Assembly (NCBI RefSeq): GCF_027943255.1
Contig: NC_072896.1
Location: forward strand, 9,176,001-9,240,000
Direction: 5' to 3'
From: Anastrepha obliqua
Taxonomy: Eukaryota; Arthropoda; Insecta; Diptera; Tephritidae
DNA: 64,000 nucleotides
Shown here one piece after another: positions 1 through 63,430 of this stretch (its first letter is position 1; every line of letters begins with the position of its first letter). A model generated the notes under the pieces. It saw nothing but the letters and a program-made list of their open reading frames with translations, ran no database searches and was not told where the DNA came from. Both the position numbers and the translations under genes were made by a program.

Positions 1-1160
1 CCGCAAGATACCCTCGCTCAGCATAACCCCAATGATGCAATGGCGTTTACAATTAAAAGTAAAAATGTTGTAATTTTTATAGTTTTACGAGCTAAGTTTT
101 TTACAATTTTATGTATTTTTACAGCAAGTTTCCATTGTTTTGTACATAAAATGTTTCCGCACCTCAAAGCGCGCGCGACTTTGCGACTCCTCCACAGCAA
201 CAGCACCAGAAGTAGTAGCCGCCACAGCAGCATTAAGGTTGCAACAGCGTCATTGTTGCTACTCACTTTTTTGTGTTCATTTCTTATACTATGTACTGTT
301 ATTGTTATTGTTTTCGGTTTTTTGCAAACCAAAAAAAAAACTACTTTGTCCGCTCAAGGCGCAACTGCAGTGCCCCTGAGCCAAATTTATTGCTAAAAAA
401 TACAATTTTTTTCTCCAAATTATTATCTATTACTTTTGTTTTTGTTTTGGCCACAGTCTGAATTTTGATTTTAGCGCCGCGTGAAGGCGTTAAACTTGCG
501 CTTTGATGCCAAGGCAGAATTTTTGAAGTGATTCGATTAAATTTTCAATGTTTGAATTATGCGAGTAATGAGTAAAGTATAAGAAACTTGAAAGGAAAAA
601 CACGCGTTTCGAATGGGCGTCAATGCAAAAAACAAAAAAAAAACAAAAATCGCATGATTTATGGCGACAAACTGTGTTTTTATGCTTAAAGTTTTTTTAT
701 GAAAATTATTGTTCTTTTTTTTATAAATATATCTTGACTACAACGATGGAATTTTTAGGCGATAGAAATTTTGCTTTTATTTTGTTACAAGAATAAATTT
801 GTTTGAATGCAATTATATAATATGTTGCAGTATTTGCGTTAAAATTCAATATCAACTTGGCCCGAAAAAATTTTAATGCTATTAAACATTCGAAAAAGTC
901 ATTAAAATAACGGATTTAAATGTCACATACCGTACTTTTTATAGAAAATATTATTTTGTGTTTTTGACAAAACTTAAAGAGTTGAAAAATCATTAATTCT
1001 TAAGCTTTTTAAATTAACAAAAATCGTTAACTTAAATTAAATTCGTTAAATGTTTAGTTTGTTATCTACATTGTTATGATGCATTTAATTTTTTTTATTA
1101 ATTATTTAAATAAAAATCGTGTACTGAAAATTACGTGGGAAGCCAGTATTTTGGCATTTT
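1..1160. other. A+T-rich unique DNA, no gene recognised
   Basis: Both strands hold only short open frames of low-complexity composition, rich in Leu/Ser/Phe/Lys runs and unlike any family I know. A small less A+T-rich patch with a GCGCGCG run and CAGCAG-type triplets lies around 165-240. Nothing else is supportable. Confidence 0.5.
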
Positions 1161-2490
1161 ATTTACTTTCTAAATATACCGAAATTCAGGTGGCAACCCT
1201 ATCCAAAAATTGTTCTTATAAAACTTTGCTAGAAATACTTTTTATAAATTGCCAATATTTTCACATTTTATTAACTTTCTAAATTTACTGAAAACTAGGT
1301 GGCAACCCTGTTCAAAAATTTGTTTTATAAAATTTTGTCAGAAACTTTCATATGTTACAAATATTTTGACATTTTATTTACTTTCTAAATATGTATATTG
1401 AAATTTACATGGCAACCCTATCCAAAAATTGTTCTCATAAAAGTTTGCTAAAAATACTTCTTATAAGTTACCAATATTTTGAGAATTTATTTCCTCTCTA
1501 AAAATATGGAAAATTAGGTGGCAACCCCGTTAAAGAATTTCTTATAAAAATTTTTCGAAGATACTTTTCATTTATTACCAATATTTTCACATTTTATACA
1601 CTTTCTAAATATACTGAAATTTTGGTGGTCCAAAAATTGTTTTTATAAAAGTTTGCCAAAAATACTTTTTATTTGTTAGCAATATTTTCACATTTTATTC
1701 ACATTCTAAACATACTGAAAATTAGGTGGCAGCCCCATTAAAAAATGTGTCTAATAAAAGTTTGTCCAAAATGCTTTTCATGTGTTACCAATATTTTGAC
1801 ATTTTATTTATTTTCTAAATATATGGAAAATTAGGTGGCAACCCTGCTACAAAATGTCTTATAAAAAAAAAAATTTTGACATGTTATTTACTTTATAAAT
1901 ATATTTAAATTTAGGTGGCAACTCTATAAATAATTTTTCTTATATAAGTTTGCTAAAAATACTTTTCATTTGTTATCAATATTTTCACATTTTATGCACT
2001 TTCTAAATTTACCGAAAATTAGGTGGCAACCCTGTTCAAAAATTTGTCTCATAAAAGTTTGTCCAAATACTTTACATACATATGTTACCAATATTTTCAC
2101 AATTTATTTACTTTCTAAATATATGGAAAATTAGGTGGCAACCCTCTTCATTTTTTTTCATAAAGGTCTGTCCAACACTTTTCACTTGCTATTAATATGT
2201 TGACATTTTATTTAATAAATAATATCATATTCGAAAGGGTAGCAACCCTTATGCAAATATTTTCAAAAAGAACACGGATCCCAATAAAATTTGTGAACAT
2301 TTATTATTACCAACACATATATCGGTTATGATGTACTTTTACTTTTTGAATAATTATTAATTTTTTACTCGAAATTAGGTGGCAACTCTCATCAAATATT
2401 TCTGGACTAGAGCAGTCACAAGTGTCCCCAATGAGTTAACTTATTTATTTTTAAAATTATTCCAAAAAAGTGGCAACATTGCGCGAATAA
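1160..2490. repeat. Satellite block 1, ~109-bp monomers with GGTGGCAACCCT box
   Basis: About 13 diverged monomers in direct tandem order. The box GGTGGCAACCCT or a variant starts near 1189, 1298, 1408, 1517, 1623, 1725, 1834, 1914, 2022, 2134, 2238, 2378 and 2468, so spacing is mostly 102-112 bp with one short (80) and one long (140) unit. Each box is preceded by TTTACTTTCTAAATATACTG-like DNA. Each is followed by AAAAATTTG, then a segment like TTTCATTTGTTACCAATATT. Monomers are A+T-rich apart from the box. The same two conserved segments recur in the blocks at 17-19 kb and 61-63 kb. Confidence 0.88.
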
Positions 2491-3250
2491 TTTTCCACGG
2501 TACCACTTCACTAAAAAGGGTTGGAAAGTATCTAACTACAAATCTTCTTACAGATCGTTGGAGCTGCTTCCTGGTTTGGAAGATGCAATGGCATGTTATG
2601 CAGGACCATTGAAGCAATTACGAAAAGCAACATGGAAAGCCTATGGCTATGGCTTTAGACCCTACACAAATGTTAAAAGGACATTTCTGTAAGACATTAT
2701 TTTCTGATACCATAGATATTACATGCAATAGCAGAGCTAAGAGCTGGAATCGTTTCGAGCCGAAAATATGTTTAGAAGATAACTGAATGGGTTGGATAGA
2801 AAAATAAAAAAATTTCGAGATTTCCAAAGGATTTCGGCGAATGTGATATTCGTTTCTACTAGGGAGACCAACTCTCTCTCTCTGCTTTAGAAGTAAAGCT
2901 GAAAAGTGACAATTTGAATTCAGTTAAAGTCTACTACGCATTCAAGGAAGTGTTTGCTTTAAGATTTTAGACGACCTCAGCTCTCGCTCAGCTACAGAGA
3001 TATTGTTCGACGTTCTCTAGTCCCTGCTCATCCTTGTCGCCATTTGAGAGGAATCCTATCCGCTTGCCGTTTAATTTTTTTTTCATTCATCCTTGGTGTA
3101 TTTACTTTGCCTCCCGACACCTGTATTCCTTGGCCCATCTACTATTTGTTAGTTCAATGAAAAGGAATACGAGCTGAGCCGATGTTTACGTGAAGACAAA
3201 GAATGCCCGAGTTATGGCCAAAGTTTAATCAAAATAATTAAAGAATTAAA
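2490..3250. other. Unique DNA, no gene recognised
   Basis: Moderate-complexity sequence with a short CT run near 2873-2883. A stretch read on + around 2680-2785 is open for about 33 codons but matches nothing I recognise. No terminal repeats or transposase motifs were seen. Confidence 0.4.
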
Positions 3251-3253
3251 TAA

Positions 3254-3478
3254 TTGGCCGTACACTTCCGTTACGTTTTTGGGCGAGCTGCTCCTCCTAT
3301 TTGTGGTATGCACCTTGATGGTGTTCCACAAATGGAGGCACGTACAGTTTTAAGTCGACTCCGAACGGCAAATGGCTTTTCATAAGGAGCCTTTTAATTG
3401 CAGAAACATAGTCGGAGGTTTGCCATTGCCTACCGAGGGACGGTCACTATTAGAAAACACTTTTTCTTTTGGATGTTC
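3254..3478 (-). mobile_element. SINE body, 5'-truncated (tRNA head missing)
   Basis: On the minus strand it follows the body of the SINE seen at 15013 and 43732: a TATTAGAAAA-like segment after the head, GGCAATGGCAAACCTCCGA, a CTCCTTATGAAAAG block, the GCCGTTCGGAGTCG block (partly changed), a CATTTGTGGAACACCATCAA block, then CACAAATAGGAGGAGCAGCTC. The tRNA-related head with its B box is not visible, so the copy is truncated at its 5' end. Clearly an interspersed repeat; the family name is not assigned. Confidence 0.75.
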
Positions 3479-3479
3479 A

Positions 3480-5420: not shown

Positions 5421-5499
5421 CGGCCGGCAGAAAAGATGTTTTCTATGAATTGATGTTTCATGAACGGAGATTCTCTTCAATCTTGCGAACAGGAAACAG

Positions 5500-6430: not shown

Positions 6431-7685
6431 CAGTTAAAGACAATATGTATTTTGTTAATGCCTCACACACAACTGGTTTTACTTTCTTTTAACTTTGGCC
6501 CGCCCTTAACTATTATAAAGCCCAGTAGCATTAGTTTGCCTTCGGTTTGTTATATTGATGGTTAATGGGCAATTATTCGTTAATCTACTATTCATTAATT
6601 TGAACTTGATTAAACATTTGAAAACAATAAATATCGAACTGTTAAATTTGCGTGTTCTTAGAAGCTGACCCTGAAAATGTATGGAAAATCTTACAAAACA
6701 AAGAAATATGGCACACCTCGCATGAAGGCAAAGCGAAATTAGAGTTTAAGTGAAAAAATTGCAGTGAATAGAAGCAATCAAATGCAGTTTTAAACAAATT
6801 AGTTTCACTAATGACTACAGATACTGATTTTTTTATTGCTCTCTACATACCTATGTATGCGTGTATGTTTGCAAACCACCGCACGCTCCAGCGATTAAGT
6901 GGTTTTCGGAACAACCAGCCACATGCAAGCATGAAAAAGTAAAATACGGGTATTTGTATAGGCGCGTGCACTTGCATATAGTATTTGGGTAGCGTTGTAG
7001 TTTGTGTGAATATCGTTCGTTTTTGAATAAAAAACCTCAGCATTCAATTTACATATCAATACCATTCATTAGTACTTTACTAGCAAGTTATTTATTTATT
7101 TATTGTGTTTTGCTAAGAATGACCATAATTAAATCGTAATTGATTGCAGTGATTGGCAATGCACTGATTTCTATGGAAATCATAAAAAATAGTTGTAAAA
7201 ATACAACCCATGGACACAAATCACAAACTGGTAGCAATTAGAGTTGACTAAATGTGTGCAATAAACCCACGTAAGGAAGTGCAAGTGGACATGAAAATGT
7301 TGAAATGCGTGTAGGTGTGGGATAATATATGCATTCACATTGACGTGCAGTACGTGGTCAAATTATTATACTCATTTGAGAAAAAAAGTATATTTATAAA
7401 AAATTTAATCTACTATTAGCACCATAACATCGTTTCATCAGTTATAAGGATAAATAATAGCTTTACTGAATATTAACTGCGGCTACGCTCGCATTTATTT
7501 CTCATAAAACGTAAATCAACTAGAGCCTACGAGTGTTGTTGGCAAACTTAAGCTTTCCTCTTATGGGCCAAAATACGTAATTATTCTTGCCTAAAACTTC
7601 ATCGCTGCAATTTTGATAAAATTTGACGAAGATGCTAGACAGTAAACTAAATTGTGAATGGGGGAGAGAAAAATTTGAGAAATTG
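6430..7685. other. Unique A+T-rich DNA, no gene recognised
   Basis: Non-repetitive A+T-rich sequence with a few TATGTATG/TGTGTG short tracts. No coding region, RNA gene or terminal inverted repeat is supportable. Confidence 0.4.
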
Positions 7686-7850
7686 CATGAAAAAGCTCCT
7701 CATAAAAACCATTGGCGTTTGGAGTCGGCTCAAAACTATAGCTTCCTCCATTTGTAGAACAACATTAAGATGCGTGCTACAAATAGGAGAAGGAGGTCGG
7801 CCAAACACCTAACAGAAGTTAATGCGCCAATTATTTATTTATTTTTTTTT
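7686..7850 (+). mobile_element. SINE 3' half
   Basis: Contains GAAAAAGCTCCTCATAAAAA, GGAGTCGGCTCAAAACTATA, CTCCATTTGTAGAACAACAT, ACAAATAGGAGAAGGAGGTC, GGCCAAACACC and GCGCCAATTATTTATTTATT, in the SINE order. It is 5'-truncated. Its tail is a TATT tract rather than the TA tract of the 43732 copy. Confidence 0.8.
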
Positions 7851-8990
7851 TATTTAACGAACTCTTTTTTCGTTGAATCGAAAGTCATATATATCGGAAG
7901 CATGATGGAAAGAATAATGAGATGGTGCCTATCGTGGTCCCGTTACTTTGCTCTCAGCGAATTTGACAACGAGTTACGTAATTTTAGCACCAGTATTGCC
8001 AGATTACCATTTTCGTAACTTGATTTACAATTTTTTTTGTTATTTAGTCTCGAAGTTTTAGTTCTTTCTTCATGACATTTTTCTAGACTGTTCTAATTAA
8101 AATGTAATGTTTATAATTTTGTAAAATATACATTTTTTAGTAATTAGTTAAATAATTCACTCAGTTTTATTTAGCTTTACTTTTTTTAACATCTGGTGGC
8201 ATTGCCCACGATTGCAGGTGTTGTTGGTGTTCTTCTGTTTTCGGCAGTCAAATCTCTTTCTCGCTACTGCAGTGTTGCCTAGCTTTGAATATAAAGACGC
8301 ACTAAAATGCCCATTTTAAGAAAATGAAACACCAAATTTTTATTGAATCACTTAAAGAATTAATTTATAAGTTTTTTTTTTTGTTAAGCTAGACTCATTT
8401 GGTAAGGGACCGACTTATTTGTTATATTTGAGGTTATGTAACTAGATAAGGTACTCTTTTTGTAAAAATGTCAGTATGGTTTCTTTAGTATTTTCTGGTA
8501 TTTTGCGGCTTATTTTTACAATGAATACACCTCTTGATGCCCTATGACCCACTAAGAATTGATGTCCGGAAGAAACGATTACACCTCTATGGTTTTAATC
8601 CGCATACAGTAAAATCAAACGCCTTTTAAAATGTGTAAAAAGGTTTTCAATCTTAAGAAGAGTTGACAGAGGGACATTTAATATTCTTGCGCAACCTTAA
8701 AAGAAGCAAAAAATTAAATTCACACTTTCAAAACATCAAATTTTATAAGAACCAACTAATTTTCATTAGCACTCAGAGTGGCCTTTTTTAACCTTCTTTT
8801 GTATAATAATATAGTTTGTTTTTTAACTTAAAGTTTCGGTAGCTTTAAATTAAAAAAAAAGAAACAAATATGAAACTTCAAAATTTTCAAATGATTTTGA
8901 CTTTTTTTGTCAGCACATTTTTATGAATTTTACAAATTATGTTTACACCGTGCTAAAGTTTTTGGGAAACTAACGAAAAACTGAAAAATA
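7850..8990. other. Unique A+T-rich DNA, no gene recognised
   Basis: T-rich and A-rich homopolymer tracts separated by unique sequence. A less A+T-rich patch at about 8195-8280 (CTGGTGGCATTGCCCACG and following) contains GGTGGCA but no neighbouring satellite monomers. Confidence 0.4.
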
Positions 8991-9790
8991 AAATTCACAA
9001 CTTCTGTTGTCGAATACTCGAAATTGAATTTATTGAAAATTTTCGCTTTTACTTAGAAAACCAAGTCGTTTTTCTTCAAATTCCGACATTGTAGATTTTT
9101 GTGAATTGTACTCAAAAATTCAAAAACATTTTCTGGTGAGAAATATTTTTTTTTCTTTTTTTTCTTTTTTCAAATTTCCACATTTTGGGTTTTTTGATTA
9201 TATTCAAATAGAAGATTGAAATTTCTCCATTTTATGGTGAAAACTAATTTTCTTTTTTTAAAATTTCAGCGTTTTTAATTTTTGTAATTATACTCAAAAA
9301 TTCGAAAACGATTTGTTATGGATTTTTTTTTTATTTTTTCAAATTTTGATATATTTTTTTTTTTTTAATTCTGCGCAAATAAGAGAGATTTTACTTTTTA
9401 TAGAGAAAACCGAATTTTTTTTTCAAATTTCGAAATTTTGGTGTTTATATGAATGATTTATTTTTATGACTGATTATACTCAAAAATTCGAAAATAATTT
9501 ATGAAAAAATATAATGGTTTTTTTTTTTTTGAACACTAATTCCAATTTCGATATTGTAATTTTTCTTAATTAAAGTTAATTACAGCTAAAAATTCGAAAA
9601 TAAATTATGTAAAACAAAAATATGGAAAAGACTTGATTAAAAAAATATATGAAATTTTTTGGGAATGTTTTTTCAAATTACGACTTTATAGATTTTTATT
9701 AATTACAGTAAAAACTTCGGATAATTTATTTGGCAATTTTTTTTTTTTTTTAATTTTTACATTTTAAATTAATTTTAATATTAATCAAAA
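8990..9790. repeat. T-rich degenerate minisatellite, ~80-120-bp units
   Basis: Recurring order: CAAATTTCGACATT-like box, ATTTTT, AATTATACTCAAAAATTCGA, AAA, GATTTATG, long T run. Copies of ACTCAAAAATTCGAAAA (or close variants) appear near 9110, 9290, 9479 and 9585. The T runs (8-14 nt) are all on the plus strand, so the array is strongly strand-asymmetric. The units are too degenerate for an exact period by eye. Confidence 0.7.
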
Positions 9791-11880
9791 GAAAGAGTGG
9801 AATTTTTATTTTTTAAGGAGAAAATAGCGCTAGAAATGAGAAAATATTTACTGATAAATGAAAATATTACTTAAGAGTGTTACGCAAAATGTGGGGTAAA
9901 AAGGTGATACGAATTTTTTACAGAGGAAAACAATTTCTGCATTGAATTTTCGTCTCGAACGTTGGGAGACAGCTAAAACATAGGTGTAAGTTGCTTTATT
10001 ATTTCAATAAATTTACAACAAGCAACTTAGTTTTTCTAACGTCTGCGAGTTAATCCATTGCACTGCGTCTTCCTAACGACTGCGTGCAAGATAAAAATTA
10101 AATCATCAAATTTTTTGCCTTCACATATAGTAAGGTATATTTTTTCCCTATGTCCCACTCTCTACTTACAATATTTTAGTATTGTGAACGCAAATTACTT
10201 CTCAATGTCACTTTTTTGCAATAAAAGCACATTTTCTGAGTCCATTTCGTATGCCTTATAGAAAAATTACAAATACCGAAAATTTCTGGATTTTTAAGAA
10301 ATAATCGCGTTATTTTTGGGAATTAAATACTCTAGTATATACGGGTTCAATGAACTCATTCCCGGGATGCCGCGCACCCAGCCTGTTTTGAATTCCGAAA
10401 GTCTTCGGACTAGTCAATTCAAACCAAGTGACTGGTGGTTATTCTTACAAAGTCTGGTGCAATTCTCATATGTCGCTAAATAAAAATAAGCAAATAATTG
10501 GAATTAGGTGCTTTGTCCCTTATACATCGATTACAAAATAATATGCCGCAAATCCCGATAACAGCAAAACCTCTAAAAAGGACATCTCTAGCACCTATGC
10601 GTGTGCCTTCCAATTATTGCCGAGCGCTTAAATCATGTGAAAGAAAATGTGATGGAAATTCTTCTCTATTTTCAGTAACAAATTTGACTTTATAAAAGCA
10701 CGAGAAAACTTTAAATTACACGCTTCAGTTTTACACTGTAAGAGGTCAAAGTTCACTTGACTTCAATTTGCAATATATTTTAAAATACGCAACTCATGCG
10801 AACTCACACGCCAGCCATCGCGCCTATCGATAACTCTGTGAAATTGCGTGCGCTTGTAAGTTTTTAAATAAATATATGTACATATATTTATATACGCAAT
10901 ATTTTATGTAGTCCCATAAATTAATTCGTGGCCACACGAAAAAAATAGTTACATATTTTCCCTGCTCTTATTTACATAGAAGAAGAATGAAAAATCGCTA
11001 GGGTGTACGGCATGGGTGAGTACGCCATAATTTATGGCGATGCGTCATGCGTGTATGCGCATACATCTATGTATGTATGTGTTCACTTATGGTTAAACAT
11101 GTAAGCTGTTTTAATTTAGATTACTTTTTTAAATTATTACCCAGCCCGATAACAGCGCCGCGAGTGTCGCAATCAATATATTTTTGCTAAATCCATATAC
11201 GAGTATGCATTAATTAGTCATTAGTCTCGAAAGCCTATTATGCATTAATTAGTAGACTTACTAGTCGCTTTAAACAAAAATCGAATAAAAATTGAAATTA
11301 GAATAATGGGGATCCGCAGAATTACTTCATACCCTATGACACAATTCCTAGGCACTTACATAGTCTACTCAGGCGCGGTTTTATAAACTCGAGCCCTATT
11401 TGTGTTCTCTCTTTTTGCTCTAGTCGTATGCCCAGCGTAGAATGCTCATATCTTCTTCTTATGTTATAGTTTGGTTGCCCCACTTTTAGGTTTGATCTTT
11501 CAATGTTGGATGGTACATTTTTTTATTTTTTTTCAGCCTTATCCTAATGAACTTTTACTTATGCGAGTACGTGTGAGTATTCAATTACTTCAACCTATGT
11601 TAACTTGTCACAGGCTAAGTTATCATCAAGGACTATAATGATAAAATTTAGCCTGGAAGTTATTTCATCCCAAGAAAAAACAACTTTTCCATTGCCTAAT
11701 TTCAACTTATCTCCATTGAAAACGAGCTTTTTCTTCATATGCTTTACAATTTGTAAAGAGTCAATTCTGAGACCAGTTGCACAGTCAATATTTTGCTATA
11801 TAGCGAAAGCAGTCCCAGATAAGATTGTCAACTTAATCATTACGCCTTGATGAGGCTTTTGAATGTTGAATTTTGTATGA
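9790..11880. other. Unique DNA, no gene recognised
   Basis: Includes a less A+T-rich patch near 10360-10430 (CCCGGGATGCCGCGCACCCA) and TATGTATG tracts near 11065. The open frames at 10498-10695 and 11605-11850 (+) show no family features. The 3' edge runs into the RTE relic. Confidence 0.4.
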
Positions 11881-11884
11881 CGGA

Positions 11885-12965
11885 ATTTTATCGGAGCCCA
11901 TGCGAACCGAAGCCGGTGTGAGGCTGTATCTTATCAACGCTACTTTTCCTGGTCGGCATTGATGAAATTCTAGCCAGCTCAGTTGATAATAAGGAAGAAG
12001 GTGATTACTCTGGCACCCTAATACAATGGAGCACCTTAAAGATTGCGCACTTGGAAGAGAACCCTCGAAAAAGAACTTAAGGCTGGAGGCGAATCTTTGA
12101 AAGAGGTCGAAGTCATCGCGAAGGAACGTGATCGTTGGAAGCGTTTTGTAGAGGCCCTATGCCCCATTAGGGAAGACAGGAATTAAGAGATCTTGAAGAT
12201 TTAGATTTCGCCAACGGTATAGTACTGCTTTCAGACATGTAAAGTAAACTGAACGCCTTTGTAAAACACTCTAACACTGCTGAACTCAAAGTCAATGTAA
12301 AGAAAAAACAAATATTTGGCAAAAAATGCTAATGACGCGTCCTTCAATATTGCAGAGAACAGCATTGACAAAATGAGTGGCTTTCAATATCTTGGCAACC
12401 TATTCACAAAGCAATAAACGTATTTGTTAATCTCCGAATGCCCAAAAAAATCAGCGTCCAAACCAAACTTCGTATCTTTAATTCAAATGTTAAGCCTGCA
12501 CTCCCGCTTGAAAAGCATTGTGTCCATCAGCAGAAATCGTTTAAAAGCTGCAAATGCTTGGAAACCGCAACTTGAGATACATCCTGCGCATTTGGTGGCC
12601 AAATAATTGGGTATCGAACGCCGACTTACACTGACAATACCAACAAAAACGACTCGCGCAAGGAATCAGACAGCGCAAGTTGAACTGACTCGGTCATACA
12701 CTACACAAGGGAGGCACGGAGATCAGCAGACAAGCACTAGCCTGCAATCTCCAGGGTCAGCGGTCTGAGGCGGACCTAGGAGCTCATGGCGCCGTTTCAG
12801 CGAAAGTCAAATGAAAGCTGGGGACAAAAACCTGACGTGGCAACAATTAAAAGCAAAAGCAGGGAACAGAAAGAAGTGGACTAATTTTGCTTTGGCCCTA
12901 CGATCCGCAACAGAGCTCGACGGTCTTTTTTGAAAGAAATTTCATACGCTCACAAAAGAGATGTG
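11885..12965 (+). pseudogene. RTE-clade non-LTR reverse transcriptase, rearranged relic
   Basis: Around 11915-11985 the + strand reads GCILSTLLFLVGIDE, the RT motif-B region of RTE elements (R-Q-G-C...). Around 12190-12240 it reads LEDLDFANGIVLLSD, the motif-C region in which the catalytic FADD has become FANG. KVNVKKKQIFG, then FQYLGNLFTK follow at about 12290-12415, then LRIFNSNVKPAL (12465-12500), LRYILRIWWP (12570-12602) and, near 12680-12750, RKLN-stop-LGHTLHKGGTEISRQAL. These are the typical connection and C-terminal parts of RTE proteins. Between motifs B and C lies an out-of-place segment (separate entry). Many stops and frameshifts make it non-functional. Confidence 0.8.
12040..12186 (+). 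pseudogene. Misplaced RTE C-terminal tail inside the RT core
   Basis: An uninterrupted 47-codon reading runs RTWKRTLEKELKAGG ... AKERDRWKRFVEALCP ... EDRN followed by TAA. This is the very end of an RTE-type ORF, yet it lies between motif B and motif C of the surrounding relic. The relic has its own C-terminal region further downstream. It is better preserved than the DNA around it. It could be a nested 3'-end insertion of a younger copy or the product of a rearrangement. Confidence 0.7.
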
Positions 12966-15012
12966 TCTACAAGCAAAAATGTGTTGAAAAATTATAAAAT
13001 TAATTTTAAACTGCAAGTAATCACAAACGGCTTAAACTATTGGGGTACTACTTTTTTACTATACAACCCTTGAGACATTAGCTATCACTCCTCAGAAATA
13101 AAATTTATCAAATATGTATTTCCTGTTACTTATAAAATTTCCAAAACAAAAATATAATTCTTCAAAAATTGGTGTTGCCGTGCGTGGCTTCACAAACTTT
13201 GACATTTTTAGGTGAGTTGCAAGTGATTAGAGTAAACTAAAATTTCTGATTATAGCTTGGACTGAATAAGCAAGAAAGAGGAGTTTATTTTTATCAAAAT
13301 CGCACTAACTAGAATTTTGCAGTTTTAGTGCAGTTTTTGCGAATAAAGTTTTGAGAAAAACTCCTTACGTGAACTTTAAAAGTACCTCTCAACGGTAGAT
13401 GGCTTTCTTAATGAGGAGATTTTTCATGGCAGAAGTACATTCGGAGTAATGGCAAAAATCGATTTTCTTGTGTGTATCAATGAATTCAGCTCAGTAGACT
13501 TTTCCCTAACCGTCAGAATTTAATAGAACTTTGATAGGTTTATACAACAGAAGTTGTACTACAAAAGTGTTACTATGTTTTTTCAATACCAAAATTAAAA
13601 AAGCCTAGACTAAATATTACATGTCCTGTAAATAAATTAATTTGCTTTCAAAAATACATAATCAGACGCAAAGTACATATGTAAGTCAGAATATAATCAC
13701 TATTCCAGAAACAAATACACTTTAATGTACATGAATGTGTGTGTGTACGTAATTGCAATTAAAACCACGCAAATAAATTGCGGTAGAAATATGTGAGTTT
13801 GCGGTAAATGTAAAAATTGAACATGCGGTCGGATATAATGTCAAGTGCGTGCAGCACATAAAAAAACGTACAAAAATTAACAGAACATATAAATAAACCA
13901 TAAAATGATAAATAGCAGAGGGGAAAACATGATATGTAGTGCTTTTGTAATTAAAAATAAAATAATACAAAGGGAAAGTCAAGTAATCGCATATGCAAAT
14001 GTATGTCTGTAATCATGTAAAGTACATACAACACAAATATATATCAGGTACCTATCAGGTACCATAAAAGGCAGGAGTTGCGGCAAAATTTAATTATTAT
14101 ATGCAACTGCGCAAACGATTGCTAAATTACGGCATTTGGTTGAAATTTTTACGCAAGCAAGATTCAATTTAAACTCATACCCGAATGCCCTGTAGGGAAA
14201 GCTTGAAGTAATGTGACGAATTTCTCTTGCTCTAGTGCAACAAATGCCACTGGTGTAACTTTTTGCTCGTTTAATATTGTCAAGAAAGAAGAATTTCTGC
14301 TGAGATGAAGTGAGTGTCAAGAATAATAGCTAGTTTTCAGCGATTTCACTGTGGTTCCAAGCACACTTTTACACTTGATTCCATAATCTTTGTGGAAAAC
14401 TAGCCATATCCTTTGGCGAGTCTAATTAACCATTTTCAGGTGTTCAAGTTGCCCATCTAATCGAGAGCGTGGTTTTCGAAAAATTTAAAGCTCAGCGTGT
14501 GATGGTTTTGGATATACTCCGATGCAGAGAGATAACATAGTGACTAGAAAATAATTATCTTGATTTAAAATACAAAATCATTGAAGGACTGCCCTTTAAA
14601 AGCTCACTGGATGCCTGAAATGCCTATTGCCATGCCTAGAGACGAAGAACTCTTCCTAATAGACGCCTCTTATTATTATTAAACCAGGTGGCGCATCAAT
14701 TAACCTTTTATCGCCTCGCTACCTAAAATGTTTTGATACTCAAATAGATGATCACTACGAACTTTAAACGCCCTCTCCCCGAAGTATTCCTCATTCGTAC
14801 AGAAAGTTTTGAATTGACTCAGTTTTTAACCTCTACAGCTTCTACATAAATTATTGTGTTAGTGAGTTTTAGACCAGACTAAATTTTCTCACGTAAAATA
14901 CGACCCTTAACCGACTGGCCATTTACCTCACTATCAAACATTTGTGTGTGTGATTTCGAGCTACAACTCTGAGATCACGCTCAGAGCATTAGTAAAAAGA
15001 AAAGTAAAGGGA
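12965..15012. other. Unique A+T-rich DNA with scraps of known repeats
   Basis: No gene recognised. A short minus-strand SINE scrap (CATGAAAAATCTCCTCATTA) lies at about 13408-13427. CAGGTGGCGCATCAATTAAC at about 14685 resembles one end of the GGTGGCGCAAAATTAAT MITE family found at 16962 and 53152. A tandem doublet of TATCAGGTACC occurs near 14042-14062. Confidence 0.4.
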
Positions 15013-16695: not shown

Positions 16696-16961
16696 TATTA
16701 GAGAAATTCTTGCATTCAAACAACAGATTCTTGCTCTCGTTTATAACTCAATAAAAATTTTATTTTGAGGAAAAAAATTAAACATATTCCTACCTTGTTG
16801 AGTGAAAACTAAATATGCGGGAAAAGTCTCAGACTTGAAAATATTTTCAGTTTTAACCTTTTTTTTTAAGGTACGAATGTAAATAGGTCGCCACCCTAGT
16901 TAAAATATATCTGAATAAATGTTTTCTTCAAAAGTTATACTTTGAAAATGAAATTCTAATT

Positions 16962-17136
16962 CAGCGCAAGTGGCGCAAAATTAATCACCTAATTTTGTTT
17001 TGAAATAAAATTTTTTAGAAAAAAAAATTATTTTGAGTGATGTAATTCTTTATATTTGTTATGCGCACGCTTGTCTGTTTGTATACTGCAATAAATTATC
17101 AATCTTCTGATAAGATGATTCATTTTGCGCCACCCT
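16962..17136. mobile_element. MITE with GTGGCGCAAAATTAATC termini
   Basis: Left end CAGCGCAAGTGGCGCAAAAT and right end (read inward on the minus strand) CAGGGTGGCGCAAAATGAAT are imperfect inverted repeats about 30 bp deep. The element is about 175 bp, with a TA after the right end. No coding capacity. The ends resemble those at 53152-53316, so both probably belong to one Tc1/mariner-type non-autonomous family. Confidence 0.7.
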
Positions 17137-18127
17137 GTATTTTAAAATATATTTTTATATTCAATTAGTTGCAACATTTTCATTAATTATCATAAGTAAT
17201 AAAAATTTTAGCAAGGCGGAAACCCAATTTTTTAGTTAGATGGCAACCCTATTTACAAATATGTGTAAAATAAAATTTTCTCAGATAGCTTTCGTTTAAT
17301 TCTAATATTTTATTATTTTAATTTTTCATTATTTTAACTTTTTTGATATAAAGGTGGCATCTCTTTTTAAACATATTTCTGAATTAAACAGTTCTTTGCT
17401 TTGTGTGTCATATTTTATATCTTGATTAATATAAATACATATTTAATTCCTTATAATAATTGAATTATTTCTCATTTTGAATTATTTTTTTAGTTAGATG
17501 GCAATCCTGTATACAAATATGTCTAACGCGCCATTTTCTGAAATATATTTCGTTTGATTCTAATATTTTAATACAGTGTTCACCTGTTACACTTAATTAG
17601 TTTAACTTTTTTGATATATAGGTGGCATCTCTTTTTCAAAATATTTCTGAATTAAAGTGTTATTTGCTTGGATTTCATATTCTAATGTCTTAATTAATTA
17701 ATGCATGCATATTTAATACTTTGTAATATTGGTATGTTTGAATTACCTCTCATATTTTATGAATTTTTAGTTAGATGGCAACCCTATTGACAAATATGTC
17801 TAAAATAACATTTTCTTAAATAGCTTTCATTTGATTCTAATATTTGAATACAGTGTTCATCTGTTACAGAAAATTAGTTATAATTTTTTTATACATAGGT
17901 GGGATCTCTTTTTAAAAATATTTCTGATTTAACTTGTTCCGAAATACCTTTTCTTTGATAATTATTAAAATATGTATATACTTAGTGGTATATTGTGTAG
18001 CTAGCATTAATTGCAATTTTTTTTTTTTATACTTATATGGCAACTCTTTTTAAAAATATTTCAGAATTCAATTATTTCTAATAGCTTTCCTTTGATATAC
18101 ATTTTTCAATATTTTAATTGCCTTATA

Positions 18128-18301
18128 CAGGGTTGGCCATATTAAACTGACCCATGTGATTATTAAAAAAATATGGAAAAAGAAACCTTTTTTTTTGTTT
18201 CATTGTGAAAAACATTTAATTTAGTTCAAGGAGATTCGTTTACATCACTTTTTGAATATGATATCGCGCAAGTGGTCGCCCTTAGCACGTATTTGGATAT
18301 G
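18128..18301. mobile_element. Left part of a mariner-like deletion derivative (outer copy)
   Basis: Begins CAGGGTTGGCCATATTAAAC right after a TA and is nearly identical to the first ~165 bp of the next element. On the minus strand its edge encodes HIQIRAKGDH then LRDIIFKK, a transposase C-terminus. It ends abruptly at the TA where the next copy starts, and the rest of this copy is not found beyond 18663. Confidence 0.8.
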
Positions 18302-18303
18302 TA

Positions 18304-18663
18304 CAGGGTTGGCCATATTAAACTGACCCATGTGATTATTAAAAAAATATGGAAAAAGAATCATTTTTTTGTGTTTCATTGTGAAAAACATTTAATTTAG
18401 TTCAAGGAGATTCGTTTACATCACTTTTTGAATATGATATCGCGCAAGTGGTCGCCCTTAGCTCGTATAGCGTAATGTGCCCGTTTTTCGGCGTTTTCCA
18501 TAGTTTTGGCCAGCGCCTCGGCCGATATGGCGGCTATTTCCCGTCGGATATTGGCCTTAAATGCGCCTAGTGTCTTTGGCTTGTTGACGTAAACCTTAGA
18601 TTTCAAATTACAGTAAAAAGTTATAGGGTTACTCAATGGGTCAGTTTAATATGGCCAACCCTG
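18304..18663 (-). mobile_element. 360-bp internally deleted mariner-like element
   Basis: It is bounded by perfect inverted repeats of about 27 bp (CAGGGTTGGCCATATTAAAC plus seven further matching bases) and flanked by TA on each side. Between them only the last part of a transposase remains: minus-strand codons 18636-18421 read VYVNKPKTLGAFKANIRREI ... RAKGDHLRDIIFKK. This matches the C-terminus of DUF4817/DDE_3 transposases, the same superfamily lineage as 15499-16581 but a different family by its ends. The HTH and all catalytic residues are deleted, so it could move only with help from a full-length relative. Confidence 0.88.
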
Positions 18664-19016
18664 TATATTTAATTTCTATAATTTTCTTTCGATGAGTGGC
18701 AACCCAATTTAAAAGTATTTTTGAATTTAAGAGTTCTCAATTACCTTTCACTTGATGCCCATATTGTAAAAATTTAATTAACTTACATATTTAGTCCTTT
18801 TACAGATTTAATATAGACGGGGACCCTATTTAAAATATGTATTTCCGGATCAAAATACTATTAACAATCTTCCTTGAATACCCACATTTTATTATCTTAA
18901 TTATCTTTGAAATTTAATACATTTAAATTTTTTGTACAACTTATACAACTCTATAATATTTTATATACTATTATATCGTAATTTACTTTCAAATTTAGAG
19001 CATTTAAAGCTTTTGC

Positions 19017-19707
19017 ATGAATGGCAACTCTATTATTCATTTAAATGTTTTGTCTGAAAGAAATGTTCCTCGTCTGGAAGAAAGCCTGTTCATTTGGCTT
19101 AGACAGTGTAGAGGACAAAAAGTATCTGTGAGCGGTACTTTGTTAAAGGAAAAAGCAAAAGAGTTCGCGTATACTGTAAACATACAAAACTTTGCGGCAA
19201 GTGAAGGGTGGCTTACCAATTGCAAAAAGAGGAATGGAGTCGTACCAGTAGTTGATATATTTAAGTGGATGAAGATGTTGCTGTCTTAGGATCACTAACC
19301 GACGGCGGAATTTTATCTGCGACAGATACGAATGAAAAGAGCAACGATGAAGATGAAGACGATACATCACAACCTTTGGCAGAGATGTCAGTTAAGGTAG
19401 CACGAGCCTCATTCGATAACTTACAAAGCTTTTGTCTACAAAACGAAACTGATGAAACAGCATATTTTCTCCTTAAAAACATTATTGAAAAGTCTGAGCA
19501 GCAGCAATGTACTTCGAAGCAAACCCGTATAAATGAGTTCTTTTCAAAGATTAATTGATTCACATTATCAGTTTAATAAAAACACTTTATAATTCGAAGT
19601 TTTATTTATTTTCTCTCAAAAATTTCGATCCATTTAATATGTCAAATACTCGATAATTCGTAATATTTTAAGAGTCTCTCGAATTTCGAATTAACGAGAG
19701 TCGACTG
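19017..19707 (+). mobile_element. pogo/Tigger-like relic, 5' truncated and internally deleted
   Basis: Two coding remnants are joined. From about 19045 the first reads RNVPRLEESLFIWLRQCRGQ, then VSGTLLKEKAKEFA, then FAASEGWLTNCKKRNGV, the CENP-B-type DNA-binding helix-turn-helix of Tigger/pogo transposases. The frame then shifts near 19260. The second (to 19556) gives an acidic tail (SNDEDEDDTSQPLAEMS) and the C-terminus SKQTRINEFFSKIN followed by a stop. The whole DDE catalytic domain is missing. The right terminus reads inward on the minus strand as CAGTCGACTCTCGTTAATTC and is followed by TA (19708-19709). The matching left terminus was not found. Confidence 0.82.
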
Positions 19708-29200: not shown

Positions 29201-29454
29201 TTTTACATAAAATTAAGCTATTTTATGTAAAAAATCGTATGACATTTGTACATATGGAAAAAATATATTCTTTAAAAAATATGTCGCGTAAAATATTGCC
29301 CTGATAAATCCAACAAGTCATTGGCTCAACTAAAGTTCAAGTCTGTTTAAAACTGATGTGAAAAGTAGGTTGTAAAAATGGTATGCCATTAAATAAATGA
29401 AAACTTAAAATAATAACTTCTGCAATAAATATCCCACGAAAAATAATTAATTAA

Positions 29455-50029: not shown

Positions 50030-51975
50030 TTATACCCGTGGGTTTCACCCCACATTTCTATCAAAAAGTATGCAATGTAAATAAAACAACTTTAACTTTT
50101 TTAAGTCAGTTTAGGTATTATTTGAGTATTATTTTGAGTATAAATAAAAAGGTTTTTCGGTGAGGAGGAATTTCTGATGGGTCCGGAGTTAAGAAACTCA
50201 ACGGGATAATGAACAGCCTGGGATTCTTCGACGACTGTTTCAATGGAATGATAAGTTGTGACAGTTCCTGGTAGTATTTCTTGAATTTTGAATATAGATA
50301 TTACAATGGAATGCATCAGCTGTTTTTTGTTTACATATTTACAGTGATGGCGATTAAACGATGATTTTATAACTTGTGGTGAACACTGTCAATATTTTTC
50401 GCTGTTAAACTTGCATTTCAATTTGATATGTGTTGTTTGCTATTTTATTAATTTGGATTATTTCATATTTAATTTCAAAATAAAACTATTTTAGCTTACA
50501 TACGTAATCATATAGCTTTGAGTGTAATATTTATGTAGCTAAACCGGCATTATTATCTAGGCATGGCGTAGTTTTTAAAGCATTTTTTTAAATAAAATTG
50601 ATATTTCGCTTAGATTGCTGGACTGTTTACTTACCGATACAGCTTTACCAATAAGAGAATGCATTCAATTCAGCAATACCTCTATCGTTGATAATATAAA
50701 TTCGTTTCTATATCAAATGGTCTAACCCCCATTTTTCTCTAAGCTCAAATTTTTTCTACCTACCTACTAACTTCATTAATGCGTCCAGTGATATGCAGTA
50801 TGAAAAATCCCATTTGTATAGGAGGTGTCACGCCCCATTTCTAGCTATCACCAGTTTTCATGCAGGTGTTAGGTATTAACCTTATATAATCTCTTACCAA
50901 ATTCAGTTGTCTAGCCCAAATACTTCCGGAAATATGGACAATGAAAAATTGAATTTACATGGGAGGTGCCAAGCCCCCTTTCTCGTTTTTCTCAGTTTTC
51001 TTGGAGGTGTTAGGGATTAACCTCATATAACCCCTTCCCAAATTTCATTCGTCTCGTCTAAATACTTCCAGAAATATGGACTATAAAAAATTCCAGTTGT
51101 ATGGGAGGTGCCACGCCCCCTTTTTCGTTTTTCTCAGTTTTTCTGGATGTGGTAAGGATTAATGTCATATAACCCCTTACCAAATTTCAGTAGTCTAACG
51201 TAAATACTTCCAGAAATACGGACTGTTAAAAATTCCAGTTGTATGGGAGGTGCCACGCCCCCTTTTTCGTTATACGCAGTTTTTGTGGATGTGGTAAGGA
51301 TTAATGTCATATAACCCCTTACCAAATTTCAGTAGTCTAACGTAAATACTTCCAGAAATACGGACTGTTAAAAATTCCAGTGGTATGGGAGGTGCCACGC
51401 CCCCTTTTTCGTTATACGCAGTTTTTGTGGATGTGGTAAGGATTAATGTCATATAACCCCTTACTAAATTTCAGTGGTCTAACGTAAATACTTTCAGAAA
51501 TATGGACTGGTAAAAATTCCATTTGTATGGGAGGTGCCACTCCCCCTTTTTAGTTATACGCAGTTTTTGTGAATGTGGTAAGGATTAATGTCATATAACC
51601 CCTTACCAAATTTCAGTAGTCTAACGTAAATACTTCCAGAAATACGGACTGTTAAAAATTCCAGTTGTATGGGAGGTACCACGCCCCCTTTTTCGTTATA
51701 CGCAGTTTTTGTGGATGTGATAAGGATTAATGTCATATAACCCCTTACCAAATTTCAGTGGTCTAACGTAATTACTTTCAGAAATACGGACTGTTAAAAA
51801 CTCCATTTGTATGGGAGGTGCCACGCCCCCTATATATATCAAAATATTTTTTAGCCTATGACCATCCCGGTAAGGTATCCAGTTCGTGTTTCAAATTTGG
51901 TTACGATCGGTTTATGCGTTTAGGCCGCAAGTCGATCTATAGATACATACATAATTTGAATTTTATATATATAGA
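50030..51975 (+). mobile_element. Interspersed element carrying an internal 142-bp tandem array
   Basis: The left boundary near AACTAGCTTATACCCGTGGG (50023-50042) with TTTCACCCCAC, and the right part GTTTCAAATTTGGTTACGAT ... GATACATACATAATTTG ... TATATATAGATT, are strings I associate with widespread insect interspersed repeats. Between them lie a ~700-bp unique segment and the 142-bp tandem array. A non-autonomous element with an internal minisatellite recalls Helentron-associated (DINE-1-like) elements of flies, but no helitron hairpin or TC...CTAG end was verified, so the class is open. Confidence 0.55.
50740..51840. repeat. 142-bp tandem repeat, about 8 units
   Basis: GGAGGTGCCACGCCCCC or a variant starts at 50821, 50962, 51104, 51246, 51388, 51530, 51672 and 51814: steps of 141 then six times 142 bp. 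Each unit also has CATATAACCCCTTACCAAAT, TTCAGTAGTCTAACGTAAAT, ACTTCCAGAAATACGGACT and GTTAAAAATTCCAGTTGTAT. Units from about 51100 on are much more alike than the two leftmost, a gradient typical of unequal exchange. Antisense frames of about 60 codons in each unit are by-products of the repeat. Confidence 0.95.
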
Positions 51976-52508: not shown

Positions 52509-52509
52509 T

Positions 52510-53150: not shown

Positions 53151-53151
53151 A

Positions 53152-53316: not shown

Positions 53317-53319
53317 TAC

Positions 53320-54110: not shown

Positions 54111-54111
54111 A

Positions 54112-54293: not shown

Positions 54294-54299
54294 TAAATA

Positions 54300-55665
54300 A
54301 TATCAAGTTTTTTAAATAAAATAAATTTTTGAAAATACCTAAGTTCTGCATAAACTCACATTAGAAGAGTTAAATCGTAAAAGAACTGCCCAAAAGTTGT
54401 TTAGAATTGTATCAAGGGAAACAACATAAAGCGCTTTTTGATGCTATGTTGACTTTTTTAGAAGATAAGTTTAAGGAAAATTTGAATACCTAACCCAAAT
54501 GTTTACCTATTTAGACTTCAAAGAAAGGTATTTATTATTTAAAAAGTAAAAGGGTGATTTTGTATCTTTAAAAATCAACTCTTTCACGTCTAAAAAAAAG
54601 TTTTTAAAACCAAATTACTTTTTCAAAATAAGTTCTGCGTAAAATCCTAAAAGAACTGCACAAAAGTGCTAAATAATTTTATCAAGGGAAGCAAAATAAA
54701 GCGATTTTTGATGCTATGTTGACTTTTTTCGGAAGATTGGTTTAAGGAAACCTTGAATAACTCCGCCAAATTTTTACCGATTCTGACTTCTACGAAAAGT
54801 ATTTATTATTTCGAAGGGTATTTTCTCCACCCTTTTGTATCTTTAAAAATCAACTCATTCACGTCTAAAAACAGTTTTTAAAATAAAATTAATTTTTAAA
54901 AATAAGTTCTGCATAAACTTACGTTAGAAGAGTTAAATCATAAAAGAACTGCCCAAAAGTTGTTTAGAATTTCATCAAGGGAAGCAACATAAAACGATTT
55001 TTTAAGCTATGTTGACTTTTTTTGGAAGATAAGTTTAAGCAAATTTTAATAACTCAGTTAAATTTTTACCGATTGAGACTTCAAAAAAAGGTACTTATTA
55101 TTTAGAAAGTTTTTTTCTCCACCCTTCTGTATCTTTAAAAATCAACTCATTCACTTGTAAAAAAAATTGAAGCTAACTACAGAGATTTTTGATGCTTTGT
55201 TGACTTTTTTCGGAAGATTGGTTTAAGGAAAACTTTAATAACTCAGCCAAATTTTTACCAATTTAGACATCTAAGAAAGGTAATTATTATTTAGAAAGAT
55301 ATTTTCTCCACCCTTTTATTTCTTTTCAACCCTTTACATCTAAAAAACTGAAGCAAAATACAGCGATTTTTGATGCTATGTTGACTTTTTTCGGAAGATT
55401 GGTTTAAGGAAAACTTGAACAACTCAGCCAAGTTTTTACCAATTTAGACTTCCAAGAAAAGTATTTATTATTTATAAAGATATTTTCTCCACCCTTTTAT
55501 TTCTTTTCAACCCTTTCACATCTAAAAAAACTCAAGCAAAATACACCGATTTTTGACGCTATGTTGACTTTTTTCGGAAGATAGGTTTAAGGAAAACTTG
55601 AATAACTCAGCCAAATTTTTACCGATTTAGACCTGTAAGGCATTACTAGGGTGGTTTCTTCCACC
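54300..55665. repeat. Two-form tandem array: ~280-bp units then ~182-bp units
   Basis: GCTATGTTGACTTTTTT (or a variant) starts near 54443, 54713, 55006, 55194, 55375 and 55558. The first steps are 270 and 293 bp, the later ones 188, 181 and 183 bp. Long units contain an extra segment (AGTTCTGCATAAACTCAC ... AAAAGAACTGCCCAAAAGTT) missing from short units. Shared parts include TTCGGAAGATTGGTTTAAGG, AACTCAGCCAAATTTTTACC, and CTCCACCCTTTT. It looks like an array in which a deleted unit later amplified. Confidence 0.88.
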
Positions 55666-58545: not shown

Positions 58546-58549
58546 ATGT

Positions 58550-58840: not shown

Positions 58841-58844
58841 TCTT

Positions 58845-59815: not shown

Positions 59816-59818
59816 ACA

Positions 59819-59989
59819 CAGTGAAACCTCCCTTAGGCGGACACTCACCGTCAATTAACTTCTCTTCACCGAAGAGAGGTGTCCGCTCAAGAAAGGGTAA
59901 TTTGTTCCAAAAACTAAGACTTGCTAGGAAAAAAGTCCGCCCAAGGCAAGTAGCCGTCTAAAAAAGGTATCCGTTAGGAGAGGTAACTG
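59819..59989. mobile_element. 171-bp MITE with CAGTGAAACCTCCCTTAGG ends
   Basis: Left CAGTGAAACCTCCCTTAGGC and right, on minus, CAGTTACCTCTCCTAACGGA are imperfect inverted repeats about 25 bp long. TA follows the right end; the left flank is CA, so the target duplication is not clean. Internal GAGAGGTGTCCGCTCAAG is an inverted copy of part of the end. Termini of this style occur in Tigger/pogo-type elements. Non-coding. Confidence 0.75.
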
Positions 59990-61440: not shown

Positions 61441-61444
61441 TTTG

Positions 61445-63430
61445 CATTCAATTAAAATTGTATTAGTAAAAACTATGTGGCAACACCAGTAAATACAAAT
61501 GTTTTTAAAGAATTTGAACTACTCTTCGTGTACTACCCGCAACCAATACTCAATGCATTTGTGTAATTAAATTATATTTTATCCAATAAAAAGTAATTGG
61601 CAACGCCACTCGATAATATTTTTTATTTAAAGATTTCTTAAACACATTCGTTTCATAACCATACTTTGCAAATTTAACGCAGATTTGCATTGAATAAAAA
61701 TTTTTTTAATAATAACTATGCGGCAACATCAGTACGCGCAAACGTTTTTTTAACAATTTGAGCCACTCTTCGTGTGTTACCCACATCCAATACTTAGTTT
61801 GCTATAAAATTAAAATTTTTCGAATAAAAAGTGGTTGGCAACGCCATACAAAAATAATTTTAATTTTTCTTAAACACGTTCATTTGATAGCTATTTTGTG
61901 TACTTAATTTAGATATTTTTTTATTAGAATTTTTTGTCAAAAACTAGGTGGCAACGCTATTAACAACTTTTTTTTATAGAACTTTAAACCAGCCACCAAG
62001 TAATATTTTTTAATTAAAGTTTTCTCAAACACATTCGTTTGATACCCATATTTTTATATTTAATTCAAATTTGCATTAAATTTTTAATTAAAATTAGGTG
62101 GCAACACCAGTAAGCGCAAATATTTTTCAACAATTTGAGCCACTCTTCGTATGTTACCCACATCCAATATTTAAGCCATTTTGCTATCAAATTGTATTTA
62201 TCGAATGAAAAGTAGTTGGCAACGCCACCCAAAAATAACTTTGTACTCAATTTTTCTTAAACCAGTTCATTTGACAGCTATTGTGTACTTAAATTAGATT
62301 TTTTTTGAAATTACAATTTTTTATCAAAAACTAGGTGGCAACGCCATTAAGAACTTTTTTTAAGAATTTTAAACCAGCCATCAAGTAATATTTTTTAATT
62401 ACAGTTTTCTTAAACACATTCGTTTCATACCCATATTTTTATATATAATTCAGATTTGCATTAACTTCAACTTTTTTAATAAAAATTAGGTGGCAACACC
62501 AGTAAGCGCAAATATGTTTCAGCAATTTGAGCCACTCTTCGTATGTTACCCACATCTAATATTTAAGCCATTTTGCTATCAAATTGTATTTTATCGAATA
62601 AAAAGTAGTTGGCAACGCCACCCAAAAATAACTTTGTACTCAATTTTTCTTAAACAAGTTCATTTGACAGCTATTTTGTGTACTTAAGTTAGATTTTTTT
62701 TTAAATTACAATTTTTTATCAAAAACTAGGTGGCAACGCCATTAAGAATTTTAAGCCAGCAACCCAGAATATTTTTTAATTAAAGTTTTCTTAAACACAT
62801 TCGTTTAATACCCATATGTTTATATTTAATTCAGAATGGCATACAATTCAACTTGTTTAATAAAAATGAGGTGGCAACCCGAGTAAGAGCAAACGTTTTT
62901 CAACAATTGGAGCCACTCTTCGTGTGTTACCCACATCCAATATTTAAACCATTTTGCTATCAAATTTTATCGAATAAAAAAATTAGTTGGCAACGCCTCC
63001 CAAAAATAACTTTTTACTAAATTTTTCTTGAACACGTTCATTTGACAGCTATTTTGTGTACTTAATTTAGATTTTTTTATATTACAATTTTTATCAAAAA
63101 CTAGGTGGCAACGCCATTAAGAATTTGTTTTTTAAGAATTTTAAACCAGTCTTCCTGTGGTACTCTCATCTAATACTTAATAGAACTTACGGCAACGCTA
63201 CTAAGAATTATTTTTCAATTAAATCTTTCTTAAAAGCCTTTAAGCTCCTAATTTTATATTTAATTGGGAATTTAAAAAACCGATTCATTTTTTAAGTTGG
63301 AAACTCTACTCAAAAATATGTTGTTTAATTTAAGTTTAAAAAATGTTGCGTCACCTGAATCTTTAATTACTGCATTTTGAACAAAACTAGGTGGCAACGC
63401 TCTCAAAAGATTTTTAAATTTAAATTTGCT
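61445..63430. repeat. Satellite block 3, ~380-390-bp higher-order units with GGCAACGCC boxes
   Basis: Monomers of about 110-135 bp, each with a GGTGGCAAC or GTTGGCAACGCC box, are arranged in a three-monomer order. The first carries AAGTAGTTGGCAACGCCACC, the second AAAACTAGGTGGCAACGCCA and the third AAAATTAGGTGGCAACACCA with GAGCCACTCTTCGT. The first type occurs near 61599, 61837, 62218, 62611 and 62989, so steps settle at 378-393 bp. Each monomer shares CATTCGTTTGATACCCATAT or CATTTGACAGCTATTTTGTG segments. It decays on both edges. Confidence 0.92.

What the first reader, a model, noticed from the sequence alone, without database searches (positions are those of the whole stretch)
1160..63430. 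One satellite family with a conserved GGTGGCAAC box in three separate blocks across 60 kb
Blocks at 1.2-2.5, 16.9-19.0 and 61.4-63.4 kb differ in period (about 109-bp monomer, 260-277-bp dimer, 380-390-bp trimer). All monomers keep GGTGGCAACNCN and a second segment like TTTGATACCCATATTTT, in the same order. Outside these boxes the monomers have drifted heavily. A short box holding while its A+T-rich surroundings drift could mean selection or protein binding. GGCAAC is also a half-site of the RFX X-box consensus; that link is speculation.
Basis: partly seen in the sequence, partly recalled or inferred. Interest (0 to 1): 0.75.

Follow-up and report, generated by a model that had tools for sequence, protein, structure and literature searches.

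The report
Dispersed fly satellite with conserved box
Short tandem-repeat arrays scattered through a fruit-fly genome have drifted almost beyond recognition except for one 14-letter word that stays much more constant, which suggests that a protein reads that word.

Summary
The three blocks are real and belong to one old family of short head-to-tail arrays dispersed through an 836-Mb fly genome (Anastrepha-like by its mariner gene). GGTGGCAACNCTNNNNAAAA occurs 504 times against 1 for the reversed control. Exact box pairs 90-120 bp apart occur 165 times against 0. In 50 arrays read (3 window, 46 on C1, 1 on C2), 358 boxes share their array's strand and 1 opposes; median spacing is 121 bp. The box, TAGGTGGCAACNCT plus a weaker AAAAA, is constrained. 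In a masking test that leaves out the monomers used to find each array, identity is 0.725 at the box against 0.54-0.67 elsewhere, higher in 34 of 40 usable arrays (repeated with a wider query). The second segment is recognisable but not specially conserved here; its word CATTTGATACCCATA marks a far larger set of arrays (13,158 exact, control 4). RFX fails: 0 of 266 boxes have the other half-site. No shared transposon ends were found. Best reading: a protein-binding box in a dispersed satellite-like family, comparable to nematode Box 1. The protein is unknown and binding is not shown.

The parts
1134..2480 (+). Block 1: array with monomers of about 109 bp; box places at 1189, 1298, 1408, 1517, 1625 (box mostly deleted), 1725, 1834, 1914, 2022, 2134, 2238, 2378, 2469
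   Evidence: TRF, box listing, alignment and spacings
16886..19031 (+). Block 2: diverged array, TRF dimer of 277 bp; box variants at 17239, 17353, 17497, 17621, 17774, 17898, 18036, 18695, 19020; interrupted by a mariner-type insert
   Evidence: TRF, box listing, alignment
61476..63401 (+). Block 3: trimeric array of 381 bp; box places at 61476, 61596, 61720, 61834, 61947, 62097, 62215, 62334, 62489, 62608, 62729, 62870, 62986, 63104, 63188, 63296, 63390
   Evidence: TRF, box listing, alignment
1189..1197 (+). Exact box GGTGGCAAC; other exact copies start at 1298, 1517, 1834, 1914, 2022, 2134, 2378
61947..61955 (+). Exact box GGTGGCAAC; other exact copies start at 62097, 62334, 62489, 62729, 62870, 63104, 63390
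17239..17247 (+). Box variant GATGGCAAC in block 2; the same at 17774, GGTGGCATC at 17353 and 17621, AGTGGCAAC at 18695
62038..62052 (+). Best copy of the second segment, TTTGATACCCATATT; weaker copies at 62423, 62804 and 18751
18126..18667 (-). Decayed mariner-type element with inverted ends, inserted in block 2 (not part of the family)
   Evidence: inverted ends seen in the sequence; tblastn 38% over 78 aa at 18657-18427

Best explanation
An old, dispersed satellite-like family. Monomers of about 110-125 bp sit head to tail in short one-directional arrays (median 6 boxes, about 0.8 kb) at roughly one to two thousand places, the number being a rough estimate. Shown: dispersal, tandem spacing, one strand per array, and excess conservation of one 14-bp box. 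Inferred: TAGGTGGCAACNCT(N4)AAAAA is the recognition site of a sequence-specific nuclear protein, most plausibly a multi-finger C2H2 zinc-finger protein given its length and its one free base between two well-kept cytosines. Each array then works as a docking platform with several sites, for silencing or insulating local chromatin or for marking the array. Monomers keep the box through purifying selection, or because only box-bearing monomers are re-amplified, while the A+T-rich spacer drifts.
For: 504 strict words against 1 for the reversed control; 165 exact pairs against 0; 358 boxes on the array strand against 1 opposite, 308 spacings with median 121 and none below 60, in 50 arrays. Masking test: 0.725 at the box, 0.54-0.67 elsewhere, higher in 34 of 40 arrays, none of 20,000 sign flips as large; wider query 0.70 against 0.55-0.66. 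Between arrays 0.80 in the box, 0.474 outside, 0.332 by composition (the box was also the search key here). Net one-mismatch to exact ratio about 4.5 over 15 fixed positions, i.e. about 23% change per site, where sites diverging by half would give about 15. A free base (C 45%, A 21%, G 19%, T 15%) between C 92% and C 89% looks like a recognition motif.
Against: No binding, chromatin or expression data. No relative of this genome could be searched, so selection between species was not measured. The arrays read were all found through the box, and 46 of the 47 fetched lie on one contig. A first test, biased against the box because the aligner maximises the flanks only, showed the box above the flanks in only 12 of 25 arrays. 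In one search one of 13 box columns ranks only 70th of 136. The box decays too: about 23% per site.
Confidence: 0.5

Rival explanations
1. The box is an amplification or rearrangement signal: a nick, recombination or transposase site that makes box-bearing monomers multiply and move, without any chromatin role. Pogo/CENP-B-like transposases are the obvious candidates.
For: Period and higher-order structure differ between blocks while the box persists. The same role was proposed for nematode Box 1 (PMC3694981, passages). A Tc5-type transposase DNA-binding remnant abuts block 2.
Against: The remnant is not seen in the other 36 loci held when that search was made (L039-L058 were not in it). Breakpoints were not mapped systematically; the short step between 1834 and 1914 in block 1 lies in the spacer by eye.
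Confidence: 0.2
2. No constraint: neutral relics of one ancient satellite; the box looks conserved because arrays were found through it and because monomers within an array were copied recently.
For: All fetched arrays were found by the box; within-array spacer identity also exceeds chance (0.568 against 0.332); one search gave no excess for the box.
Against: The excess persists when the monomers used for finding are left out. The genome-wide mismatch ratio does not depend on the fetched arrays. Recent whole-monomer copying should lift every column alike.
Confidence: 0.15
3. The arrays are the central repeats of non-autonomous Helentron/Helitron-type elements that carry them around.
For: Dispersed short arrays of this kind in oyster are carried by Helentrons with the array always in one orientation (PMC7492417 and PMC8268682, passages).
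Against: 500-base flanks of 50 arrays share no common left or right end: 25 matches in all, the largest group joining flanks of 6 arrays with upstream and downstream sides mixed, as expected of an ordinary dispersed repeat. Old, eroded ends cannot be excluded.
Confidence: 0.1

Closest known systems
Meloidogyne satellite DNAs with conserved Box 1 (PMC3694981, passages seen)
   Same: Satellites only 32-64% identical share a 17-bp box and differ in monomeric or higher-order organisation
   Different: That box resembles the CENP-B box and was studied in homogeneous satellite and higher-order arrays; here the word is different and the arrays are short, dispersed and strand-uniform
Dispersed satellite-like arrays of Crassostrea gigas carried by Helentrons/Helitrons (PMC7492417, PMC8268682, passages seen)
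   Same: Short arrays scattered over whole chromosomes, no preferred position
   Different: There the conserved boxes are the element ends that flank the arrays; here the conserved box is inside every monomer and no shared flanks were found
Alpha satellite with the CENP-B box (recalled; also described in PMC3694981, passages)
   Same: A short protein-binding box in an otherwise variable tandem monomer
   Different: Different sequence, monomer length and dispersal; no protein known here
Bactrocera tryoni satellites Btry_Sat1 and others, 154-182 bp (PMC4367827, passages seen)
   Same: Tephritid satellite DNA
Drosophila 1.688 satellite family (PMC7642928, search listing and start of abstract only)
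   Same: A fly satellite family
   Different: Not compared by sequence here

Membership tests
Satellite-like tandem repeat | Head-to-tail monomers at a regular step | tested here: met
   308 spacings in 50 arrays, median 121, 261 between 80 and 160, none below 60; 358 boxes on one strand, 1 opposite
Classical satellite DNA | Long homogeneous arrays in heterochromatin | tested here: not met
   Longest span among 50 arrays about 2.6 kb, median 772 bp. These 50 were found through single strict words, and assembled contigs may miss long arrays; heterochromatin itself was not tested
Conserved-box satellites (nematode Box 1 type) | A short segment conserved between monomers whose remainder has drifted | tested here: met
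RFX X-box | Two facing half-sites, GTNRCC and RGYAAC, 0-3 bases apart (motif as recalled) | tested here: not met
   0 of 266 boxes with GGCAAC have the left half-site, also with one mismatch
CENP-B box | NTTCGNNNNANNCGGGN (recalled) | tested here: not met
   The column frequencies over 50 arrays contain neither TTCG nor CGGG on either strand
CTCF site | CCASYAGRKGGCRS-like core (recalled) | tested here: not met
   AGGTGGC fits, but the columns before it are A-rich (A 68%, A 61%, A 54%, T 62%) and the base after GGCA is A in 88%
Helentron/HINE element | Conserved left and right flanks around the array | tested here: not met
   No common boundary among 500-base flanks of 50 arrays
Protein-binding satellite box | A nuclear protein that binds the box | not testable with these tools
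   Needs pull-down, EMSA or CUT&RUN

The most novel reading that the evidence does not exclude
Over a thousand short, one-directional arrays of a single 14-bp site, dispersed through a fly genome, form a genome-wide architectural or silencing system read by one dedicated zinc-finger protein. They and the far more abundant CATTTGATACCCATA arrays would be branches of one superfamily that keep different boxes for different proteins.
Probability: 0.2. Interest if true: 0.82.

Novelty: new variant of a known kind. Interest (0 to 1): 0.52.

Why it matters
If the box is a protein site, this family gives hundreds of natural multi-site arrays of graded quality in one genome. That makes the old question of whether satellite 'conserved boxes' are functional directly testable. 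It would also point to an unknown DNA-binding protein in tephritid flies and to a chromatin role for dispersed satellite-like DNA.

Tried and rejected
RFX X-box: rejected. CENP-B and CTCF likeness: rejected against motifs recalled from memory (column frequencies). Helentron-like flanks: not found. General link to the Tc5-type transposase remnant: not found in the 36 other loci held in that search (L039-L058 were not in it). Pieces of mariner-like elements do turn up in 10 of those 36 loci; not pursued. Orientation domains along chromosomes: adjacent arrays agree in 46 of 83 (C1), 12 of 29 (C2) and 6 of 13 (C3) cases, close to shuffled expectation; up to 200 kb apart 14 of 20 agree, no separate test was run (merged from the first 100 places listed). 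Rfam: 0 matches in the window; tRNAs: 0. IMG/VR pair pattern: one hit, L059, a 54-bp repeat in a contig of 40% G+C that looks like a coding repeat and is not A+T-rich, taken as unrelated. TTTCATTTGATACCCATA: 3 single hits in viral and 10 in prokaryote contigs, judged chance from the numbers and not inspected further. Letter searches of papers: one search has 742 papers (20 listed), one search has 30 (29 listed), one search has 35 (20 listed); the listed ones looked unrelated by title and abstract start, the rest were not seen. The letters of the second segment are in 0 papers. Keyword searches (69 has 1,639 papers, 20 listed) showed no description of this family in their listings; that is not proof of absence.

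The first masking test showed no excess for the box (12 of 25 arrays); it was replaced because only the flanks are maximised there. Searches ended in coding errors. L027 was fetched by a mistyped coordinate and is only an accidental region with 0 boxes. L003, L005, L027, L039, L047-L050, L052, L053 and L058 were dropped before the 50 arrays were counted (L027 is the stray, the others overlap kept loci). In one search, 40 of 50 arrays gave usable pairs at the box. DNA searches with whole monomers of blocks 1 and 3 met a busy machine and were not repeated.
Full report
What was checked. The window lies at G000:C5:9176001-9240000 in an 836-Mb genome of 204 contigs. Its mariner ORF is 95% identical over 90% of its length to an Anastrepha ludens protein from a record whose longest contig is given as 185,090,897 bases; contig C1 here has 184,948,302. 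I infer an Anastrepha-like tephritid; the species is not proven.

The three blocks. TRF finds periods of 109, 277 and 381 bp at 1143-2214, 17229-17932 and 61614-63149. GGTGGCAAC occurs 16 times, all on the + strand and only in blocks 1 and 3, against 0.23 expected. Block 2 has no exact copy but carries five one-mismatch variants on the + strand. The statement that all monomers keep the box is therefore too strong; the monomer at 1625 has lost most of it. Alignment of 37 monomers shows one unit of about 110-125 bp with the box, an A-run and a second segment in the same order in all blocks. So they are one family, not a chance short match.

The family is genome-wide. GGTGGCAACNCTNNNNAAAA occurs 504 times (273 + 231) against 1 for the reversed control; an exact box followed 90-120 bp later by GTGGCAACNCT occurs 165 times against 0. 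I read 50 distinct arrays: the three blocks plus 47 others (46 on C1, 1 on C2). All 47 were found through the box, and they come from C1 because the tool lists the first places only. Each of the 50 has at least 2 boxes, median 6, median span 772 bp, longest about 2.6 kb. With up to 3 mismatches, 358 boxes lie on the array's strand and 1 on the other; 308 spacings have median 121, quartiles 109 and 132, 261 between 80 and 160, none below 60; arrays are 73% A+T, flanks 64%. Words with up to one mismatch number 2,902 against 118 for the control. From the share of such words among boxes read (152 of 391 in the 50 arrays, which is biased upwards, and 8 of 39 in the window) I estimate 7,000-14,000 boxes in one to two thousand arrays; this is rough.

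Is the box really more conserved? Anchored columns peak at TAGGTGGCAACNCT with a weaker AAAAA at +18 to +22 (28 arrays, 50 arrays). Between arrays, 187 monomers aligned with gaps give 0.80 in the box, 0.474 outside and 0.332 by composition; within arrays 0.823 and 0.568; of 13 box columns, 12 are among the best 24 of 136 and one ranks 70th. Because the box was also the search key, I ran a test without it: a 14-bp stretch of a monomer is masked, the rest is aligned to the same array without the monomers that had been used to find it, and identity is read at the masked stretch. The box gives 0.725, places off the box 0.54-0.67; it is higher in 34 of 40 usable arrays, and none of 20,000 sign flips reaches the mean difference of 0.143. 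With a wider query, in which only the ascertaining boxes were masked, the box stays highest at 0.70 (41 arrays), other places 0.55-0.66. An earlier version without the exclusion gave 0.76 (25 arrays at the box) against 0.61-0.71 elsewhere. A first version that masked only the box and compared it with flanks maximised by the aligner showed the box higher in 12 of 25 arrays; it is biased against the box, and I report it as a result against the reading. One estimate needs no fetched arrays: the net one-mismatch to exact ratio is about 4.5 over 15 fixed positions, about 23% change per site if sites are alike and independent, while sites diverging by half would give about 15.

The second segment. 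It is recognisable: of 33 copies within two mismatches (three from overlapping loci dropped), 14 lie 53-57 bp and 25 lie 44-64 bp after the start of a box. It is not better conserved than its surroundings inside these arrays. The exact word CATTTGATACCCATA occurs 13,158 times genome-wide against 4 for the control; in the first 100 places listed, all in the first 3 Mb of C1, copies within 1 kb of each other are on one strand and steps are near 118-129 bp or multiples. An exact box followed 35-65 bases later by TTTGATACCCATA occurs only 3 times. So a much larger set of arrays shares the second word but nearly always lacks the exact box. I could not read those arrays, and a test of a sequence recalled from memory did not complete.

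Surroundings. A decayed mariner-type element interrupts block 2 (18126-18667), and a Tc5-type transposase DNA-binding remnant (Pfam 3.4e-15) abuts it at 19041-19286; the latter is not found in the 36 other loci held when I searched. One array (L012) lies about 630 bp from an open frame with a TIMELESS_C domain, so arrays can lie near genes; only 10 frames from 7 loci were scanned. Flanks of the 50 arrays share no common boundary; one dispersed repeat links flanks of six arrays, upstream and downstream sides mixed. This speaks against one mobile carrier. Neighbouring arrays are oriented as by chance.

Mechanism. Shown: dispersal, tandem order, one strand per array, constraint on one box. Inferred: a protein reads the box. 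The free base between well-kept cytosines, the graded edges, and persistence of a G+C-containing word in A+T-rich drift fit a multi-finger zinc-finger site; which protein is unknown. RFX fails because 0 of 266 boxes have the facing half-site; CENP-B and CTCF fail against recalled motifs. The rival in which the box drives array rearrangement has a precedent in nematodes (PMC3694981, passages) and was not tested systematically.

Comparison. The closest precedent in kind is the nematode Box 1 satellites; the closest in layout are dispersed oyster arrays carried by Helentrons, whose defining flanks are not met here. Hence a new variant of a known kind: a conserved-box satellite that is dispersed, short-arrayed and strand-uniform. 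Keyword and letter searches listed no description of this family; the library is partial and several listings were capped.

Noticed in passing
G000 genome-wide; first listed places C1:59217-2972755: CATTTGATACCCATA occurs 13,158 times exactly (reversed control 4), in strand-uniform clusters with steps near 118-129 bp: a far larger dispersed array set that shares the second segment.
   Followed up: partly
G000: C3, C4, C5, C6, C9, C14 and others: 62 matches to the COX1 family in nuclear contigs, several near full length with internal TGA codons as in mitochondrial code, many on C6 and C14: numerous nuclear mitochondrial copies.
   Followed up: no
window 15499-16599 (-): Uninterrupted 366-aa mariner-type frame (DUF4817 helix-turn-helix), 95% identical to an Anastrepha ludens protein.
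   Followed up: partly
window 19041-19286 (+): Tc5-type transposase DNA-binding remnant directly after the last box of block 2.
   Followed up: partly
window 50803-51831, 54981-55632, 29438-31079, 32622-33985: Other tandem arrays, among them a 142-bp one (7.3 copies, 90% matches) and a 181-bp one (3.5 copies, 86% matches), unrelated to the box by the box listing.
   Followed up: no
L012:4986-7106 (-): A 707-aa open frame with a TIMELESS_C domain about 630 bp from a box array: a gene near an array.
   Followed up: no
L045:2141-3056: Overlapping long open frames of 229-273 aa in several frames on both strands, as expected of a simple or tandem repeat without stops.
   Followed up: no
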